Origin: a virus
Direction: 5' to 3' (one strand)
IMG/VR virus record: IMGVR_UViG_3300020122_000093
Location: 1 to 35,966 of that record
Length of the DNA stretch: 35,966 bases
This document shows, piece by piece, positions 1-35,966 of the stretch; positions within the stretch are counted from its first letter, which is position 1, and each line of letters opens with the position of its first letter. The position numbers and the translations under genes were made by a program. Below the pieces are notes generated by a model. It was not told the origin of the DNA. It was given only the letters and a program-made list of their open reading frames with translations, and searched no databases.

Positions 1-53
1 CCGCGCACCGCGTCGCGCACCGCGCCGCCCACCGCGCCGCCCACCGCGTCGCT
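1..53. repeat. 12-base tandem repeat, left part
   Basis: Units of 12 bases (minus-strand type GGCGACGCGGTG) are repeated about four and a half times here and continue at 35912-35966. Together they make nine in-frame four-residue units in the DUF6745-like protein. This low-complexity stretch is where the circular map was opened, so the copy number may be wrong in the assembly. Confidence 0.85.
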
Positions 54-317
54 TTTACCGATTCGCATTTTTTCCGGCAGAGTCTCGATGATCTTGGCCG
101 CCATAGGCGCCGCCAAAGCCATCACAATGGGGCTATCCACCCATACGATTGTCGAGGGTGGGCGCAGTCCGGCAAACGCATAGCACTTGCGCGCTGCGTC
201 CTCGAAGCGTTGCCGATCCGCCGGGCCAGTGCGCAAGCCAATTTCAATCCACTTGTCGGCCCACGGCCCCATCTGTGCTTTTTGCGCCTCGCTGAGAGAG
301 TCGATTCTCTTTACCAT
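1..317 (-). CDS. DUF6745-like protein, N-terminal part (continues at 35966)
   Basis: Minus-strand ATG at 317 opens a frame with no stop down to base 1. The last two bases (GG) join base 35966 (C) to complete a glycine codon, and the frame continues to the stop at 35129, giving one protein of 384 residues. The N-terminal ~88 residues look globular and helical (start MVKRIDSLSEAQ). Residues ~89-124 are nine four-residue units of the type G/R/S-D/G-A-V, with glycines spaced like a glycine zipper. No function is established for DUF6745 proteins as far as I know. Similar short valine-rich repeats are, from memory, common in this family. The gene lies in the leftward early unit, downstream of 349..756. 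Confidence 0.8.
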   Translation of the reverse strand, partial: MVKRIDSLSEAQKAQMGPWADKWIEIGLRTGPADRQRFEDAARKCYAFAGLRPPSTIVWVDSPIVMALAAPMAAKIIETLPEKMRIGKSDAVGGAVGGAVRDAVR

Positions 318-1401: not shown

Positions 1402-1566
1402 ATGAACTCACACAATGCGCGCCTTCGCCAGAAACGGCTTGCCAGAGCAGCTAAGATTCGCTCCCTACAGGCGAAACATCCAGACCTGATATTCAAGGAA
1501 TTCAGCAAGCGCTTTCTTGGCGGGATTAGCAAACAGGCCGTATCACGAATATTGACCAAGCCATGA
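1402..1566 (+). CDS. small helix-turn-helix DNA-binding protein, possible regulator
   Basis: 54 residues, very basic (start MNSHNARLRQKRLAR). Residues ~31-53 (FKEFSKRFLGGISKQAVSRI) read as a helix-turn-helix with SKQAVSRIL as recognition helix. No Shine-Dalgarno is visible before ATG 1402, and the mapped promoter would start transcription at about 1400, so it is probably leaderless. It ends by ATGA overlap with the next gene. Position next to the divergent operator suggests a Cro- or Arc-like autoregulator of both units. Family not recognised. Confidence 0.7.
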   Translation: MNSHNARLRQKRLARAAKIRSLQAKHPDLIFKEFSKRFLGGISKQAVSRILTKP

Positions 1567-1766
1567 AAGGCCGCTCAATCGAAATGTTCGACAAGCCGCG
1601 CAAGCCGAGACAATGGCTAATGCACGTTGCCGATGCTTGCGAGTCCGAGGATAAGCCGCTTTGCATGATGGCGTGCGCTCGGTGCGGGACAGAATCGGAA
1701 TGGCTGGAGTTTGACACCGTGACCGAAGCAAAACGCGGCATACGTTGCCCGAAGTGCAACGCATGA
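1563..1766 (+). CDS. small zinc-ribbon-like protein
   Basis: 67 residues. Cysteine pairs CARCG (about residues 38-42) and CPKC (62-65) near the C-terminus form a four-cysteine ribbon of the kind that binds zinc. The N-terminus is basic and contains QWLMHVADACESED. ATG overlaps the stop of the helix-turn-helix gene (ATGA), and its own stop overlaps the nuclease start, so the three are translationally coupled. Function unknown; nucleic-acid binding is likely. Confidence 0.75.
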   Translation: MKGRSIEMFDKPRKPRQWLMHVADACESEDKPLCMMACARCGTESEWLEFDTVTEAKRGIRCPKCNA

Positions 1767-2173
1767 CCGCCAACTCCATAAAACGCGCAGGCGCAAGGAT
1801 CAATGCGCCTACGCCTGCCGCAGAATTGAAACGGCTACGGGCGAAGGCTACGCGGGAGAAGTTTGAACTGCTTTTCTTGCAACAGGTGCGCGCGGCGAAG
1901 TTGGCCGAACCGCTTCGGCAATATCAATTTGCCAAGCCGAGGAAATGGGCGTTTGACTTTGCTTTTTTTGACGGACACTTAAATCCATGCGCCATCGAAA
2001 TCGACGGCGCAATCTACACCAACGGGCGCCACACGCGCGGCAAAGGATTCGAGGCTGACTGCGAAAAATTGAATGAGGCTGCTCTATTAGGCTGGACCGT
2101 GCTTCGCTTCTCTACCGGCCAAGTCAAAAGCGGCTATGCGATTCAGACGGTCGAACGATGGTTCAAGGCATGA
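1763..2173 (+). CDS. PD-(D/E)XK-like endonuclease (DUF559/Vsr-like)
   Basis: 136 residues from ATG 1763. The core reads RKWAFDFAFF (D65), AIEIDG (E79, D81), GRHTRGKG, DCEKLNEAALLGW (K102) and VLRFS, the order seen in DUF559 and very-short-patch-repair-type nucleases of the restriction-endonuclease fold. It probably nicks or cleaves DNA, perhaps branched or mismatched DNA. Similar stand-alone proteins occur in many phage early regions. The stop overlaps the start of the C5-cytosine methyltransferase (ATGA), which fits a Vsr-Dcm or restriction-modification-like pairing, but a recombination nuclease is equally possible. Nuclease assignment is fairly sure, substrate is not. Confidence 0.8.
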   Translation: MTANSIKRAGARINAPTPAAELKRLRAKATREKFELLFLQQVRAAKLAEPLRQYQFAKPRKWAFDFAFFDGHLNPCAIEIDGAIYTNGRHTRGKGFEADCEKLNEAALLGWTVLRFSTGQVKSGYAIQTVERWFKA

Positions 2174-3141
2174 AGCCTCTCGCCATAGATTTGTTCTGCG
2201 GCCTAGGCGGATGGACAGAGGGATTATTGGCGGAAGGATTTAGAGTAATCGGCTTCGACATCGAAAAGCACGAATACGGCGATGCCAAGTATCCCGCGCA
2301 ACTCGTATTGCAAGACGTCCTGACAATCCACGGCTCGCAATTCAAGGATGCCGCGCTGATCGTCGCAAGCCCTCCGTGTCAGGAGTTTAGCTACATGGCG
2401 ATGCCCTGGTCGAAGGCGAAGGCCAAGCAGGCCGACATTCTTGCGAATCCGACCGAATGGCTGCGTCTCTGCGCGCTGTTCGACGCGTGCTTTCGGATTC
2501 AGCAGGAGGCGATTGAAGCTGCCGGCCACTTTATTCCGCTCGTGGTTGAGAATGTCCGCGGCGCGCAAAGGTGGGTTGGCCGCTCCCGCTGGAATTACGG
2601 ATCGTTTCATCTTTGGGGCGATGTGCCGGCGCTTATGCCGATGACGAAGACCGCAACGAAGCTCGGCGCAGGCGCGTCATGGTATCCACCTGATGACCCG
2701 CGCCACACACCCGGACTTGATTTCACTCGGCTTGCAGGCCAGAAAGTCCCCGGCTTCCGCTTCGACGGCAAAGGCGGCAGTTTTCAAACTGCCGCAGTCG
2801 AAAGTACAGGCGTCAAATCGCCCGGCATGAACTGGTCAGACCAATCGAAGCGCGGGCAAGATTTCACGAGGCCGGCAGCGCAACATTGCGGCATGAAAAA
2901 CGACGGCGGCTCATGGTTCAATATCCCCGGCACAGGCGGAGTAGTCGGAAACCGGAATCCAGTTCACGATCACATCAAGCAGGGCGGCGACTTGTACGGC
3001 CCTGGTGAAGACTGTTCCGCGCAACGCCGCGCCGGCAGCAAGAGCAAAGCCCGCAAAGCCGCATCGGCAGCCATCGCGAAGATTCCGTTTCCGCTCGCCC
3101 GGCACATCGCCCACTACTGGAAGCCAACGTGTTCCACCTGA
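2170..3141 (+). CDS. C5-cytosine-specific DNA methyltransferase
   Basis: 323 residues from ATG 2170 (an in-frame ATG lies at 2158). Motif I is DLFCGLGGW (residues ~7-15, S-adenosylmethionine binding), motif IV is SPPC with the catalytic cysteine at 70, and motif VI is ENVRG with glutamate 127. The C-terminal IPFPLARHIAHYW matches the motif IX-X region. The variable middle (about 170-290) is rich in Gly, Ser and aromatic residues and should hold the target-recognition domain; the target is not predictable. It transfers a methyl group to C5 of cytosine, presumably to protect phage DNA from host restriction. Coupled to the preceding nuclease gene by a 4-base overlap. Confidence 0.93.
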   Translation: MKPLAIDLFCGLGGWTEGLLAEGFRVIGFDIEKHEYGDAKYPAQLVLQDVLTIHGSQFKDAALIVASPPCQEFSYMAMPWSKAKAKQADILANPTEWLRLCALFDACFRIQQEAIEAAGHFIPLVVENVRGAQRWVGRSRWNYGSFHLWGDVPALMPMTKTATKLGAGASWYPPDDPRHTPGLDFTRLAGQKVPGFRFDGKGGSFQTAAVESTGVKSPGMNWSDQSKRGQDFTRPAAQHCGMKNDGGSWFNIPGTGGVVGNRNPVHDHIKQGGDLYGPGEDCSAQRRAGSKSKARKAASAAIAKIPFPLARHIAHYWKPTCST

Positions 3142-3142
3142 C

Positions 3143-3203
3143 CCCCACCCCTCCACACGATCCGGTTGCCACAGTGCATAAAGGGCACGCTGGGCGGGTG
3201 GGG
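3143..3203 (+). promoter_or_regulatory. stem-loop sequestering the ribosome site of the next gene
   Basis: CCCCACCC (3143-3150) can pair fully with GGGTGGGG (3196-3203), which contains most of the GGGGAG ribosome site for the TTG at 3212. A small GTGC/GCAC hairpin lies in the loop. This could limit translation of the truncated methyltransferase. Prediction by eye only. Confidence 0.35.
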
Positions 3204-3211
3204 AGTCAGCT

Positions 3212-3478
3212 TTGAACGTGCATTTTTCTAGCGCGACGGATCTGTGGTCAACGCCGCAAGAATTCTTCGATGCGCTCCATGCCGAATTCAATTTCGCGCT
3301 CGATGTTTGCGCCTCTGACGACAATGCAAAATGCGCCCACTATTTCACCGTTGCCGATGATGGGCTAGCGCAGGAGTGGTGCGTTTACCAATCCTGCTGG
3401 ATGAACCCGCCCTATGGTCGCCAGATCGGCTGCATTCACCACACACCGCTCGACACGCCGCCGGGATCTGGCTCGTGA
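3212..3478 (+). CDS. truncated phage-type DNA N6-adenine methyltransferase
   Basis: 88 residues. The sequence ATDLWSTPQEFFDALHAEF, LDVCASDDNAKC, YFTVADDGLAQEW and WMNPPYG match the phage Dam family (PF05869), with the catalytic NPPY motif present at ~64-67. Family members are about twice this length. Here similarity ends right after NPPYGRQIG, and an unrelated tail (HHTPLDTPPGSGS) runs to a stop, so the C-terminal half is missing. A deletion or frameshift before the next gene is likely. TTG start 3212 has GGGGAG upstream; GTG 3218 is the alternative. Probably non-functional. Confidence 0.75.
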   Translation: MNVHFSSATDLWSTPQEFFDALHAEFNFALDVCASDDNAKCAHYFTVADDGLAQEWCVYQSCWMNPPYGRQIGCIHHTPLDTPPGSGS

Positions 3479-3519
3479 TCGCCGATTCCTCTCTAGCCGC
3501 GTATATCGAGATCAAAAAT

Positions 3520-3798
3520 ATGCCCGGACTCGCTCCCCTGCAAAAGCGCATCCTAGAATTCCTCTGCGAATTCCCGGACCGAGATTTCACGCGAGCCGAG
3601 ATTGCGAATCACCTGGGCATGAAGGTGGCGACAGTGTGTGGGCGCATCAACGAACTACTCGACCTGGAACAGAATCGAGGCCGCGTGTGGATTGAATCGC
3701 TGCCGCTGCGAACCTGCACAATTGGCGGCAGGTCGGCTCACCCAGTACGGATTCACCGACCGGCGGGACAACTTTCACTTTTTAAGGAGGCGGCATGA
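3520..3798 (+). CDS. winged-helix protein with C-terminal clamp-binding-like motif
   Basis: 92 residues from ATG 3520; a GTG at 3475 overlapping the previous stop (GTGA) would add 15 residues and fits the coupling style of this genome. Residues ~4-50 (LQKRILEFLCEFPDRDFTR, EIANHLGMKVATVCGRINEL) form a winged helix-turn-helix. The C-terminus ends GQLSLFKEAA, and QLSLF matches the QL(S/D)LF pentapeptide by which bacterial replication proteins bind the beta sliding clamp. No replication gene is recognised in this genome, so a role in recruiting or hijacking host replication is an attractive inference. Confidence 0.7.
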   Translation: MPGLAPLQKRILEFLCEFPDRDFTRAEIANHLGMKVATVCGRINELLDLEQNRGRVWIESLPLRTCTIGGRSAHPVRIHRPAGQLSLFKEAA

Positions 3799-4007
3799 AC
3801 CGTCTCCATGATTCTGATTTTCGGGGCGCATCGCCTGGCCATCTCAAGCGGCTGAACGATCTTAATGAGACGGTTTGCAACAGGTTGCCCCTTAAAAGCT
3901 ACTGGCCTGTTGCATTCTCCCCACTGCTTGCCGGCGGCAGAATCGTTCTTGCCGGCACCCTTTCTTACGCGGGCGAACGCTTGACAATGGCAGGCGCCGC
4001 GCGGTAG
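3795..4007 (+). CDS. hypothetical protein
   Basis: 70 residues starting MNRLHDSDFRGASPGHL. Its start is strongly marked: AAGGAGG a few bases upstream and an ATGA overlap with the previous stop. The C-terminal half (AFSPLLAGGRIVLAGTLSYA) is less gene-like, and a promoter for a small RNA lies in its 3' end. It may be a short real protein or a decayed one. No family recognised. Confidence 0.5.
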   Translation: MNRLHDSDFRGASPGHLKRLNDLNETVCNRLPLKSYWPVAFSPLLAGGRIVLAGTLSYAGERLTMAGAAR

Positions 4008-4010
4008 GAT
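3981..4010 (+). promoter_or_regulatory. promoter for small structured RNA
   Basis: Perfect -35 TTGACA (3981-3986), 18-base spacer, TAGGAT (4005-4010, 4 of 6). Predicted start about 4017, directly before the three-way-junction structure. Confidence 0.55.
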
Positions 4011-4016
4011 TCGATT

Positions 4017-4116
4017 GTCGTTGGACGGAACGATTTACTAAGGCTGTTTTGTCGGTGAGTTTAGGGAGCAATCCCCCCAGGCCGTCCCCTGGGCTCACCG
4101 ACAAAGCGGCTTTTTC
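4017..4116 (+). ncRNA. candidate small RNA: three-way junction ending in a U-tract
   Basis: Bases 4040-4059 pair with 4094-4113 in an uninterrupted 20-pair stem (three G-U pairs). Inside it the sequence is used up by a TTTA linker, a hairpin GGGA-GCAA-TCCC (4064-4075, GNRA loop) and a hairpin CCCAGG-CCGTCC-CCTGGG (4076-4093). A T-rich stretch (4111-4120) follows, as in an intrinsic terminator. With the promoter at 3981-4010 this gives a roughly 100-base transcript. It could be a regulatory RNA or an elaborate terminator ending the early rightward block. No known family recognised. Confidence 0.65.
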
Positions 4117-4119
4117 CTT

Positions 4120-4345
4120 TTGTGCACCGCGGAACGTCAGGGCGCGTCAGCTAATCGGCTAAAGTCGGCCGGACCCAGGACAGACGACCCACAGGCACGC
4201 TTGCGAGCGCGTGACCCTGTGCAAATCCGTAATGGTGGGGGACTGGCTGTAGATCGAAGTCCGGGGACTTGGGAAACCAAGCATCGATCTCCCGCAAGGG
4301 GCTGAAACCTCTTCTTTCCGTGCGAGTCATGGGTAGGGGAGGCTG
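4120..4345 (+). other. structured non-coding region, unknown RNA element
   Basis: No convincing gene lies between 4118 and 4407. Several hairpins follow each other: CACAGG/CCTGTG with inner CACGC/GCGTG (4190-4221), AGATCGA/TCGATCT (4251-4290) enclosing AAGTC/GACTT or CTTGG-GAAA-CCAAG (the two compete), CCC-GCAA-GGG (4291-4300) and CCTC/GAGG (4308-4342). Two loops are GNRA tetraloops, typical of structured RNAs. TTGCTG/CAGCAA pairing follows near 4350. It may be part of a longer RNA with 4017-4116, or a leader of the GroES-like gene. Confidence 0.45.
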
Positions 4346-4406
4346 TTTGCTGAAAAATCAAAATGCCAGCAATACCTTCGCATACCATTACCTGTGGATA
4401 ACTACG

Positions 4407-4688
4407 ATGACCTTGAACAGCGCTGTGAATAACTCCATCCAACCCCTGCGAGACCTACTGCTGATCGAACCAATCGCGGAGCAAGCAGACAGCACGCTTG
4501 ACCTATCCATGCTCGACGACAAGTTCCCCAAGCGCGTCAGAGTCCTCGCCAAAGGCCCGAAGGTCGATGAATCGATCCACGTGAACGACCTTCTGCTGGT
4601 CAGCCCGTTCGCCGGCACCACGCACCGTGTGGACGGCCAGGACGTGACTTTCATCAAGGAGTCGGATATTCGGGCGGCGATCGAATGA
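4407..4688 (+). CDS. GroES-like co-chaperonin
   Basis: 93 residues from ATG 4407, close to the ~95 of bacterial GroES. The order IQPLRDLLLIEPI, RVRVLAKGPKVD, IHVNDLLLVSPFAG, VDGQDVTFIKESDIRAAI follows the chaperonin-10 fold strand by strand, ending in the typical ExDI-hydrophobic tail. Residues ~23-36 (STLDLSMLDDKFPK) take the place of the mobile loop. It probably caps the host GroEL chamber to help fold the coat protein, as T4 gp31 does. A longer reading from 4269 covers the structured region and is not preferred. The stop overlaps the next start. Confidence 0.85.
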   Translation: MTLNSAVNNSIQPLRDLLLIEPIAEQADSTLDLSMLDDKFPKRVRVLAKGPKVDESIHVNDLLLVSPFAGTTHRVDGQDVTFIKESDIRAAIE

Positions 4689-5690: not shown

Positions 5691-5992
5691 ATACCCTTGA
5701 GCACGTTGATCCTCGCGATCGCCCTATTGTTCCATCAGAGGTTGGCCGCACCGCTTTCCGTCGCTATTCCAACTGGCGCAGCACGTTCGGTTATACCCAC
5801 CCGCACATCGATAAAAACCTCATGTGCATCATGTGCAAAACCGAGGACAATGAGCCTATTCGTGATATTGCCGAACTGAAGCCGTGGACCGACTTCTTTG
5901 CGGGCAAGACCTTTGAAGGTAAGCCTGTCAAGTTTACTGCAACCCGGTGCCATGTCTGCGGTTACCCATTTTCGTTTTACTGGCCCGCATGA
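5687..5992 (+). CDS. zinc-finger-like hypothetical protein between terminase subunits
   Basis: 101 residues from GTG 5687, overlapping the previous stop (GTGA). Two cysteine pairs, CIMC (about 47-50) and CHVC (about 89-92), suggest one zinc site. The N-terminus has GRTAFRRYSNWRSTFGY. Its stop overlaps the large terminase start (ATGA). A role in packaging is suggested by position only. Confidence 0.75.
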   Translation: MNTLEHVDPRDRPIVPSEVGRTAFRRYSNWRSTFGYTHPHIDKNLMCIMCKTEDNEPIRDIAELKPWTDFFAGKTFEGKPVKFTATRCHVCGYPFSFYWPA

Positions 5993-7335
5993 GTTTCTCC
6001 TTTACCGCCAAGCAACAGGAGGCCATGACTCAGCTAATCGCCTCCGACGCTACTCATCAAATGCTGTTCGGAGGCTCGCGCTCCGGCAAGACATTCTTGT
6101 TCGTGCGCATCGTAGTCATGCGCGCCATGAAAGCGCCCAAGAGCCGGCATGTCATCCTGCGCTTTCGCTTCAACGCCTGCATGGCCGCTATCGGCATGGA
6201 CACCTTTCCCAAGGTGATGTTGACCTGCTTTCCCGGCATCAAGTACACGCTCGACAAGAAGAACTGGATATTCACCCTAGAAAACGGGTCAGAAGTCTGG
6301 CTTGGCGGCTTAGATGACAAGGAACGCACGGAAAAGATTCTCGGCCAAGAGTTCGCCACGATTTACCTGAACGAGTGTAGTCAAATCCCCTATAACAGCC
6401 GCAACATCGCCCTGACGCGCTTGGCCCAGGCTGTAATGCAGGAAATGGCCGGGCGCGAACCGACGCCGCTGAGAGTGCGGATGTACTACGACTGCAATCC
6501 ACCGTCGAAAGCACATTGGACCTACAAACTCTTTCACGACAAGCGCGACCCGGAAAGCGGCAAGTCTCTGCCGCAGCCGGCCGATTACGCCTGGTTTCAG
6601 ATCAATCCAGAAGACAACCTGCAAAACCTGACGGTGGGCTATCTCGACACGCTCAGGAACCTTTCGCCGCGGCTGCAAAAGCGATTCCTGAAGGGCGAGT
6701 TCGGGGATGCGACGCCGAATGCCTTGTTCGCCCAGGAAACGATTGACGCTTGGCGCTCCGAAAACGACAAACTACCAGACTTTGTGCGCGTGGTAGTTGC
6801 GGTCGATCCGAGCGGTTCAGGCGATTCCGATAATGCTGATAACGACGCTATCGGCATTCTGGTGGCTGCGCTTGGTACGGATGGCAATGCCTACGTGGTC
6901 GAAGACTGTACCGTCAAAGCTGGTCCTGGAACTTGGGGACGAGTCGCTGCTTCTGCCTATGAGCGCCACGCAGCCGATGTGATTGTCGGCGAAACGAACT
7001 ACGGCGGTGAAATGGTCAAGTTCACCGTTCAGACTGCCGATCCGCGCGCCAACTACAAAGCTGTCACGGCAACGCGTGGCAAAGTCGTTCGCGCCGAGCC
7101 GATCAGCGCCTTGTACGACAAAGGCAAAGTCCGCCATGTCGGCCAGTTTCACCAGCTGGAAGACGAGCTCTGTGCCTTCTCGACTTTTGGCTACACCGGC
7201 CAAGCCTCCCCGAACCGGGCCGACGCCTTGATTTGGGCGCTGACGGAGCTTTTCCCGGGCGTGGTCAAACAGCCGCGTGTGGAAGCTGAAAACGACGAGG
7301 AAGAATGGTTCGCTCATGCAGGATGGATGGCATGA
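5989..7335 (+). CDS. terminase large subunit
   Basis: 448 residues from ATG 5989. The N-terminal ATPase has Walker A GGSRSGKT (28-35) and Walker B ending TIYLNE (E129). The C-terminal RNase H-like nuclease has VVVAVDPSGSG (D273), VIVGETNYGG near 330, and NRADALIWA (D412). It pumps DNA into the prohead and cuts it. With a P22-type portal and circularly permuted contig ends, headful packaging is likely. The longer reading from 5947 is out of step with the ATGA overlap at 5989-5992. Stop overlaps the following acetyltransferase start. Confidence 0.95.
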   Translation: MSFSFTAKQQEAMTQLIASDATHQMLFGGSRSGKTFLFVRIVVMRAMKAPKSRHVILRFRFNACMAAIGMDTFPKVMLTCFPGIKYTLDKKNWIFTLENGSEVWLGGLDDKERTEKILGQEFATIYLNECSQIPYNSRNIALTRLAQAVMQEMAGREPTPLRVRMYYDCNPPSKAHWTYKLFHDKRDPESGKSLPQPADYAWFQINPEDNLQNLTVGYLDTLRNLSPRLQKRFLKGEFGDATPNALFAQETIDAWRSENDKLPDFVRVVVAVDPSGSGDSDNADNDAIGILVAALGTDGNAYVVEDCTVKAGPGTWGRVAASAYERHAADVIVGETNYGGEMVKFTVQTADPRANYKAVTATRGKVVRAEPISALYDKGKVRHVGQFHQLEDELCAFSTFGYTGQASPNRADALIWALTELFPGVVKQPRVEAENDEEEWFAHAGWMA

Positions 7336-34911: not shown

Positions 34912-35132
34912 TTGTCCTCCAGCGCGCGAATATGTCTCATCAGCAATACCGAGACCGGAAAGTACGCCTCACCGCGCGCCGGCTTCTCGACCATCTGCCG
35001 CTCGAAGTTGTCGAGCTGATCGTCGGTCAGGACTCCGGCAACCGCAGCGTCCGCCACCATCTGCGCGCGGCGTTGTTCGGCTGCTGCGCGGAGTTCGGCG
35101 GTTACTTCGGATTGGTAGGGGCGCTCGGTCAT
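34908..35132 (-). CDS. small helical protein
   Basis: 74 residues. SEVTAELRAAAEQRRAQMVA followed by VLTDDQLDNFERQMVEKPA; helical throughout, ending LLMRHIRALEDK. ATG 35132 overlaps the DUF6745-like stop. Function unknown. Confidence 0.7.
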   Translation of the reverse strand: MTERPYQSEVTAELRAAAEQRRAQMVADAAVAGVLTDDQLDNFERQMVEKPARGEAYFPVSVLLMRHIRALEDK

Positions 35133-35966
35133 GATTCCGCCACTGGCGCGTAATCTTCCGGACGCTTAAAAAACAGCGTATCCGGCGAACTACGTTTGCG
35201 CCATGTCGAGGCCGACGCAGCCAAGCATTCGCGACCGGCGCGCCCGTTGTACGCATCCGGGTCAACGGGAATAACGTAGCGTTTCGTAGTGCCATCCGGC
35301 TCTGGAGTGGAGTTCAGGACATCGAGCAGACAGAGTTCGTCGCGCCGCCAGAGCTTCGCGTCGCGCAGGCCGATCATGGCGTGATCCGGCGGGCATGAGT
35401 CCACCAGTTGCAGTTTGGCTTCCCGGCAGTAGCGCTCGTAGCCGAAGCGCTCGATCATCACGCGTCGAATCTCGGCATTCTCCTCGGCCTCGATTTCGGC
35501 CAGGGTGATGGTTTCCGGTCGCATGACCACTTTCTCCGGAACCCGGATACCGTGAATGGCGTACACGGCCCAACCCTTCCAACCTACTGCTGGGCCTTTG
35601 TCGTTGTGCAGGCGGTGAGATCCCCAACCGCGAGTAACAGCAGGATTAGTCAGTTCCCGATTAACTTCGGCCGGCCGCTCACACACCATGATGAAATCGG
35701 TATGGGGCCACCACCAGCAGGCGGACTGAATCGTTTCCTCATAGGCAATCCCGCGATCCCACAAATTACCCTCCAGGGAAAGTTCGCCGACTTCTCGCAT
35801 AAATGAGGTATATGCACCACCCCACCAGTAACCGCCGCACCAGAATTGACCGCCGATGTAGTTGGCCCAATTTCTACGGGCGGTTGCACCCAAGACCCCA
35901 CGAACTCTTTTGACCGCGCCGCCCACCGCGCCGCCCACAGCGTCGCCCACCGCGTCGCCCACCGCG
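35129..35966 (-). CDS. DUF6745-like protein, C-terminal part (begins at 317)
   Basis: Residues ~106-384 of the protein that starts at 317. After the repeats (to ~124) comes a Trp/Gly-rich segment (IGGQFWCGGYWWGGAYTSFM), then HRLHNDKGPAVGWKGWAVYA, HGIRVPEKVVMRPETITLAE and EENAEIRRVMIERFGYERYC, the DUF6745 core, and a C-terminal region ending KRPEDYAPVAES. A GTG at 35962 only looks like a start because the contig is cut there. Function unknown. Confidence 0.85.
   Translation of the reverse strand, partial: AVGDAVGDAVGGAVGGAVKRVRGVLGATARRNWANYIGGQFWCGGYWWGGAYTSFMREVGELSLEGNLWDRGIAYEETIQSACWWWPHTDFIMVCERPAEVNRELTNPAVTRGWGSHRLHNDKGPAVGWKGWAVYAIHGIRVPEKVVMRPETITLAEIEAEENAEIRRVMIERFGYERYCREAKLQLVDSCPPDHAMIGLRDAKLWRRDELCLLDVLNSTPEPDGTTKRYVIPVDPDAYNGRAGRECLAASASTWRKRSSPDTLFFKRPEDYAPVAES
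35912..35966. repeat. 12-base tandem repeat, right part
   Basis: Continues the 12-base units of 1-53 across the contig junction. The units differ by single bases (GAC/GGC, one AGC-type change), so they are diverged repeats rather than an exact assembly duplication. Confidence 0.85.

What the first reader, a model, noticed from the sequence alone, without database searches (positions are those of the whole stretch)
3981..4116. Compact three-way-junction RNA behind its own promoter
A 20-pair closing stem encloses two hairpins, one with a GCAA loop, leaving almost no unpaired bases, and ends in a U-tract. A consensus -35 and fair -10 lie at the right distance upstream. Far more elaborate than a normal terminator.
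Basis: partly seen in the sequence, partly recalled or inferred. Interest (0 to 1): 0.7.

Follow-up and report, generated by a model that had tools for sequence, protein, structure and literature searches.

The report
Phage late-promoter leader with giant terminator
A phage genome carries a promoter that probably makes a roughly 100-base RNA ending in an unusually large stop hairpin just ahead of its virion genes, most likely an on/off gate for late gene expression like the one in phage lambda, rather than a new kind of RNA.

Summary
At 4040-4113 there is a 20-pair stem (27 uninterrupted pairs with G·U) followed by a U-tract. It is the most stable 74-nt stretch of the contig; shuffles reach at most 14 pairs. 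The TTGACA-18-TAGGAT site 29 nt upstream is the only site scoring at least 10/12 on either strand (chance about 0.0014). The three-way junction is not established: it is isoenergetic with one long hairpin (-46.4 against -46.7 kcal/mol), and no homologue of the RNA was found for a covariation test.

Context gives the best reading. The element lies exactly between the rightward early operon and the late operon (GroES-like, terminase, portal, capsid). In about a dozen related phages (60-72% identical TerL) the same slot holds a sigma-70 promoter, a 35-200 nt leader and an intrinsic terminator, often just behind a small gene. Two relatives' genes at this position weakly match Q-like antiterminators. 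This is the layout of lambda pR'-tR' (6S RNA), also used by AlpA of Pseudomonas. I read it as a late-promoter leader terminator, opened by an antiterminator that I could not identify in this phage: a new member of a known kind, of modest interest. A plain operon-end terminator or a free-standing small RNA remain possible.

The parts
3981..4010 (+). sigma-70-type promoter, TTGACA - 18 nt - TAGGAT; the TAG of the -10 is also the stop codon of ORF 3795-4007
   Evidence: 10/12 matches; only site scoring at least 10/12 on either strand, chance 0.0014 per 120 nt
4017..4034 (+). possible small 5' hairpin of the leader (GUCGUU-GGACGG-AACGAU, 6 pairs, one G·U), close to the inferred start site at about 4016-4018
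   Evidence: MFE of the leader; short, could be chance; a small hairpin lies at the same place in leaders of relatives L066, L074, L080, L110, L017
4040..4113 (+). large terminator hairpin: 20-pair closing stem (4040-4059/4094-4113), interior as two hairpins or as a 7-pair extension of the stem
4064..4075 (+). inner hairpin 1, GGGA-GCAA-UCCC (GNRA-type loop), only in the three-way-junction conformer
4076..4093 (+). inner hairpin 2, CCCAGG-CCGUCC-CCUGGG, only in the three-way-junction conformer
4111..4121 (+). U-tract TTTTTCCTTTT at the 3' side of the stem (first three T lie in the stem)
   Evidence: sequence
3475..3798 (+). winged-helix protein (MarR_2-like, below cut-off; phrog_1123), last well-supported early gene; weak candidate regulator
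   Evidence: homologues in phages of other hosts, so not specific to late control
3795..4007 (+). 70-aa ORF with good Shine-Dalgarno (AAGGAGG), ATGA overlap with the gene before; orphan; candidate antiterminator by position only
   Evidence: no relatives; not retained by a codon-usage gene caller
4347..4688 (+). first late gene, GroES-like co-chaperonin
   Evidence: PF00166, phrog_3188
5989..7335 (+). terminase large subunit of the late operon, used to find relatives

Best explanation
The element is the control gate at the head of the phage's late (virion) operon. Host RNA polymerase starts at the promoter 3981-4010, makes a leader of about 100 nt, and by default stops at the oversized hairpin plus U-tract at 4040-4121, releasing a short RNA like lambda's 6S RNA. 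When a phage antiterminator has accumulated, polymerase modified near the promoter reads through and transcribes GroES, terminase, portal and capsid genes. The hairpin also stops read-through from the early operon that ends 33 nt before it. Shown here: the hairpin, the promoter match, the early/late boundary position, and the same promoter-leader-terminator layout in the same slot of related phages. Inferred: that transcription starts and stops there, and that an antiterminator opens it; the antiterminator of this phage was not identified.
For: Position between the rightward genes 1402-4007 and the late block starting at 4347. No other promoter-like site of at least 8/12 between 4011 and the first late gene. 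Hairpin and promoter both far above chance and 29 nt apart. In TerL relatives the slot between the last small early gene and the late block holds a promoter, a leader and a terminator: L009 TTGACA-17-AATAAT, L018 TTGACA-17-TACAGT, L019 TTGACA-16-TAGCAT, L012 TTGACG-17-TATAAA, L110 TTGCAA-17-GATAAT, L066 TTGTAA-17-CATAAT, L074, L080, L079, L028; L078 TTGCAT-17-TACAAT has the promoter and leader, terminator not checked. After removal of near-duplicates, 12 of 70 loci have such a module in the 4.5 kb upstream of TerL and 3 of 70 downstream, Fisher p = 0.026. The gene at this position weakly matches Q-like antiterminators in L014 (phrog_79, E 2.6e-4) and L002 (phrog_127/6060, E 0.003-0.012). Established mechanism: lambda Q binds DNA in the late promoter and lets polymerase pass the terminator (PMC7171158; PMC6266700); AlpA does the same with a terminator just upstream of alpB (PMC7969949).
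Against: No Q homologue in the window: phrog_79, phrog_127, PF06530 and PF03589 gave nothing, and PF06323 was uninformative because its control rang nowhere. Most genes before the modules in relatives have no family match. The hairpin directly follows the end of the early operon, where an ordinary terminator is expected. The RNA sequence is not conserved in any relative. There are no transcript data. The enrichment statistic is modest and includes the window itself.
Confidence: 0.62

Rival explanations
1. It is only the intrinsic terminator of the early rightward operon (1402-4007), insulating it from the late genes; the promoter match is accidental or feeds something trivial, and late genes start from an unrecognised promoter in 4122-4346 or further on.
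For: The hairpin begins 33 nt after the stop codon of ORF 3795-4007 on the same strand. Strong intrinsic terminators at operon ends are common, and many relatives have terminators in the region upstream of TerL (122 against 52 downstream in a similar amount of DNA).
Against: A 10/12 promoter 29 nt before the hairpin is the only one in the contig, chance 0.0014, and relatives repeat the promoter-terminator pairing. No better promoter downstream of the hairpin.
Confidence: 0.2
2. It is a free-standing small RNA made from its own promoter that acts in trans, for example by base-pairing with host or phage mRNA or by binding a protein.
For: Own promoter, compact stable fold, terminator end; terminated phage leaders can persist as stable RNAs (own knowledge: lambda 6S RNA).
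Against: Almost all bases are locked in the stem, leaving little single strand for pairing; no conserved sequence in any relative; no Rfam match; the slot holds unrelated leader sequences in kin.
Confidence: 0.12
3. The branched RNA is itself a cis-acting antitermination or pausing element that modifies polymerase, like HK022 put RNA, so no protein antiterminator is needed.
For: No Q protein found in the window; the leader is structured from its start; relatives show short hairpins directly after the late promoter, two of them recurring types.
Against: Put suppresses terminators, while this element ends in a U-tract and looks like a terminator; no Rfam hit of any kind; both conformers keep the base of the stem next to the U-tract.
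Confidence: 0.05

Closest known systems
Phage lambda late promoter pR' with terminator tR' and its terminated leader (6S RNA), opened by Q
   Same: Constitutive-looking sigma-70 promoter at the early/late boundary, short leader, intrinsic terminator, then late genes; two relatives carry weakly Q-like genes just upstream
   Different: Leader about 100 nt instead of 194 nt (lambda figure from own knowledge); terminator hairpin is far larger (27 pairs); no recognisable Q in this phage; Q binding element and sigma-dependent pause untested
AlpA / alpB promoter and terminator tB of Pseudomonas aeruginosa (PMC7969949)
   Same: Promoter followed by an intrinsic terminator directly upstream of the first gene; regulator predicted to be a winged-helix protein without homology to Q; the window also has a winged-helix gene just upstream
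   Different: No protein sequence comparison made; the AlpA motif GGGACGN5GGTA is not present between -35 and -10 here; the window's winged-helix protein has relatives in unrelated phages, so its role is open
HK022 put RNA
   Same: Structured leader RNA close behind a phage promoter
   Different: Put prevents termination and works on early genes (PMC9378689 abstract); this element ends as a terminator and stands before late genes
Ordinary intrinsic terminator
   Same: G+C-containing stem followed by a U-tract
   Different: 27 pairs against a best of 14 in shuffled sequence; possible branched interior; own promoter 29 nt upstream

Membership tests
Lambda-type late promoter / leader terminator (pR'-tR') | Sigma-70 promoter at the head of the late operon | tested here: met
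   TTGACA-18-TAGGAT, unique in the contig, before the late block; activity not shown
Lambda-type late promoter / leader terminator (pR'-tR') | Intrinsic terminator in the leader, before the first late gene | tested here: met
   Hairpin 4040-4113 plus TTTTTCCTTTT; termination not measured
Lambda-type late promoter / leader terminator (pR'-tR') | Q-family antiterminator gene, usually directly upstream | tested here: not met
   No match to phrog_79, phrog_127, PF06530, PF03589 in the contig; PF06323 uninformative. Weak Q-like matches in relatives L014, L002
Lambda-type late promoter / leader terminator (pR'-tR') | Q binding element between -35 and -10 and a sigma-dependent promoter-proximal pause | not testable with these tools
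   Spacer ATGGCAGGCGCCGCGCGG; an AACGAT (-10-like) occurs at 4029-4034, too short to count
Lambda-type late promoter / leader terminator (pR'-tR') | Same layout in related phages | tested here: met
   12 of 70 dereplicated loci upstream of TerL, 3 of 70 downstream; curated cases
Structured non-coding RNA with a conserved three-way junction | Covariation across homologues | tested here: inconclusive
   No homologue by pattern, blastn or covariance model
Structured non-coding RNA with a conserved three-way junction | Junction clearly preferred over other folds | tested here: not met
   -46.4 against -46.7 kcal/mol for a single hairpin
Any Rfam family | Score above the gathering cut-off | tested here: not met

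The most novel reading that the evidence does not exclude
The late-operon leaders of this phage group, this one included, are structured RNAs that themselves take part in antitermination or pausing at the late promoter (RNA-assisted late control without a classical Q), with the branched hairpin as a switchable terminator.
Probability: 0.1. Interest if true: 0.6.

Novelty: new member of a known kind. Interest (0 to 1): 0.33.

Why it matters
If right, it gives the late-control point of a poorly studied group of phages, one relative of which is a prophage of Sphingomonas, and suggests that the promoter-leader-terminator gate of lambdoid phages recurs there while leader sequences and probably antiterminators are replaced freely. 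It also points to which small genes to test as new antiterminators.

Tried and rejected
Sequence relatives of the RNA: arm pattern in IMG/VR, 0 hits; 18-nt arm, one hit without the hairpin, about what chance gives; blastn against phages and plasmids, nothing useful; single-sequence covariance model over 82 sources, only the window itself. Rfam on the window and on 12 relatives: nothing. The non-coding stretch 4117-4406 as a larger structured RNA: not more stable than shuffles (z 0.24). Relatives of the GroES-like, winged-helix and 70-aa proteins: none in viral contigs for the first two, two weak GroES hits, distant winged-helix hits in other phages, none for the 70-aa ORF. phi29-type packaging RNA was considered and dropped: this phage has a P22-like portal and a large terminase. 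The minus strand also folds into a three-way junction but has no U-tract after it.

Full report
What the window is. The contig is a tailed-phage genome of 35,966 bases from IMG/VR, with a P22-like portal, TerL, scaffold and major capsid genes on the + strand and a leftward early block holding Erf-like, RecE-like and NinB-like recombination genes. TerL is 60-72% identical to that of many IMG/VR contigs and 62-64% to a prophage of Sphingomonas sp. SRS2. No close DNA relative exists in the phage collection.

The observation. The stem at 4040-4113 is real and far beyond chance: 20 pairs, extendable to 27 uninterrupted pairs with G·U, against 11-14 for the best stem with a T-tract in 30 shuffled copies of both strands. 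It is the most stable 74-nt tile in the contig, and the reported region folds with z = -4.26. The promoter is the only site scoring at least 10/12 in the contig, and a shuffled 120-nt stretch reaches that score with frequency 0.0014. The two inner hairpins can form, including the GCAA loop, but a single long hairpin has the same energy (-46.7 against -46.4 kcal/mol). Both conformers keep the stem base beside the U-tract, so both should terminate. On the predicted start site (about 4016-4018, inferred from the -10) the RNA is about 100 nt.

Surroundings. Rightward genes run from 1402 to 4007 (small HTH-like and zinc-ribbon-like ORFs, a nuclease-like protein, a cytosine methylase domain protein, an adenine-methylase fragment, a winged-helix protein, a 70-aa ORF). 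The promoter overlaps the end of the last ORF; its TAG stop is the start of the -10. The hairpin begins 33 nt after that stop. The first late gene, a GroES-like co-chaperonin, starts at about 4347, followed by small genes, TerL and portal. No other promoter-like site of at least 8/12 lies between 4011 and the first late gene.

Relatives. The RNA sequence has no homologue in anything searched. The slot, however, is conserved in layout. In L009, L012, L018, L019, L028, L066, L074, L079, L080 and L110 a promoter of the TTGACA/TATAAT type is followed by a leader and an intrinsic terminator before the late block. L078 has the promoter and a leader type shared with L009 and L018, but I did not check its terminator; L017 and L095 have the leader and terminator with a poor -10 match. 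In a uniform scan of 70 dereplicated loci, 12 had such a module in the 4.5 kb upstream of TerL and 3 in the 4.5 kb downstream (p = 0.026); the window is one of the 12. The gene at this position weakly matches Q-like antiterminator families in L014 and L002, while the others are small unclassified proteins with a weak common pattern (LL..RW near the N-terminus).

Mechanism. The best account is a late-promoter leader with a terminator that an antiterminator opens, as with lambda pR'-tR' and Q (PMC7171158, PMC6266700) or the alpB promoter and AlpA (PMC7969949). The lambda 6S RNA itself is cited from own knowledge. Shown: hairpin, promoter match, boundary position, shared layout. Inferred: transcription start, termination, and antitermination. 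Not found: the antiterminator. No Q family matches the window (one search is uninformative because its control rang nowhere). The winged-helix gene is attractive by analogy with AlpA, but its relatives occur in phages of quite different type (many of those look T7-like by name and size, from own knowledge), which makes it an unspecific candidate; the 70-aa ORF is an orphan.

Rivals. A plain operon-end terminator explains the hairpin and its place but not the promoter, or its repetition in kin. A trans-acting small RNA is possible but little single-stranded sequence is left and nothing is conserved. A put-like RNA antiterminator (PMC9378689) is not excluded but the element ends as a terminator.

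Verdict. A well-made observation of a real and striking element; most likely a new member of a known kind of phage control device, with an unusually large terminator. Membership in the strict lambda-Q family is not claimed, because a Q gene was looked for and not found; that it works like one is the claim.

Noticed in passing
window 1-317 (-) and 35129-35966 (-): The two contig ends read through as one open frame of 384 aa inside a short-period repeat (GGAVGGAV...), so the 'linear' contig is probably a complete circularly permuted genome broken in a repeat.
   Followed up: partly
L066:2413-2450, L074:3493-3530, L110:5213-5245, L019:5572-5605, L017:6694-6725, L095:2566-2595: A recurring late-leader type: a short G+C hairpin within about 10 nt of the inferred start, followed by (C/U)AAAAUUU or UAAAAAU and then the terminator; arms vary between loci. 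Covariation not formally counted.
   Followed up: partly
L009:7219-7290, L018:6497-6560, L078:1487-1550: A second conserved late-leader type, GACGCGGAGUCYGGCC...GCUAGCC....GGCUGGC...GCGUC, directly after the late promoter.
   Followed up: partly
L002:7391, L018:6594, L082:3769, L085:4514: Shared leader hairpin GACA-GCCG(G)-GAAAGA-(C)CGGC with an apparent compensatory change in L085 (GCUG...CAGC).
   Followed up: no
L012, L017, L019, late side of the terminator (e.g. L017:6950-7010): A conserved tiny basic ORF, MKKLRDLLPK..RDKY..KK, about 20 aa.
   Followed up: no
L082:3527-3600: Another very stable compact hairpin (-52 kcal/mol per 80 nt) in the same slot, without a U-tract.
   Followed up: no
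window 3218-3478: Truncated adenine-methylase-like gene (phrog_111, residues 59-127 of 345 only), next to a cytosine-methylase-domain gene at 2158-3141.
   Followed up: no
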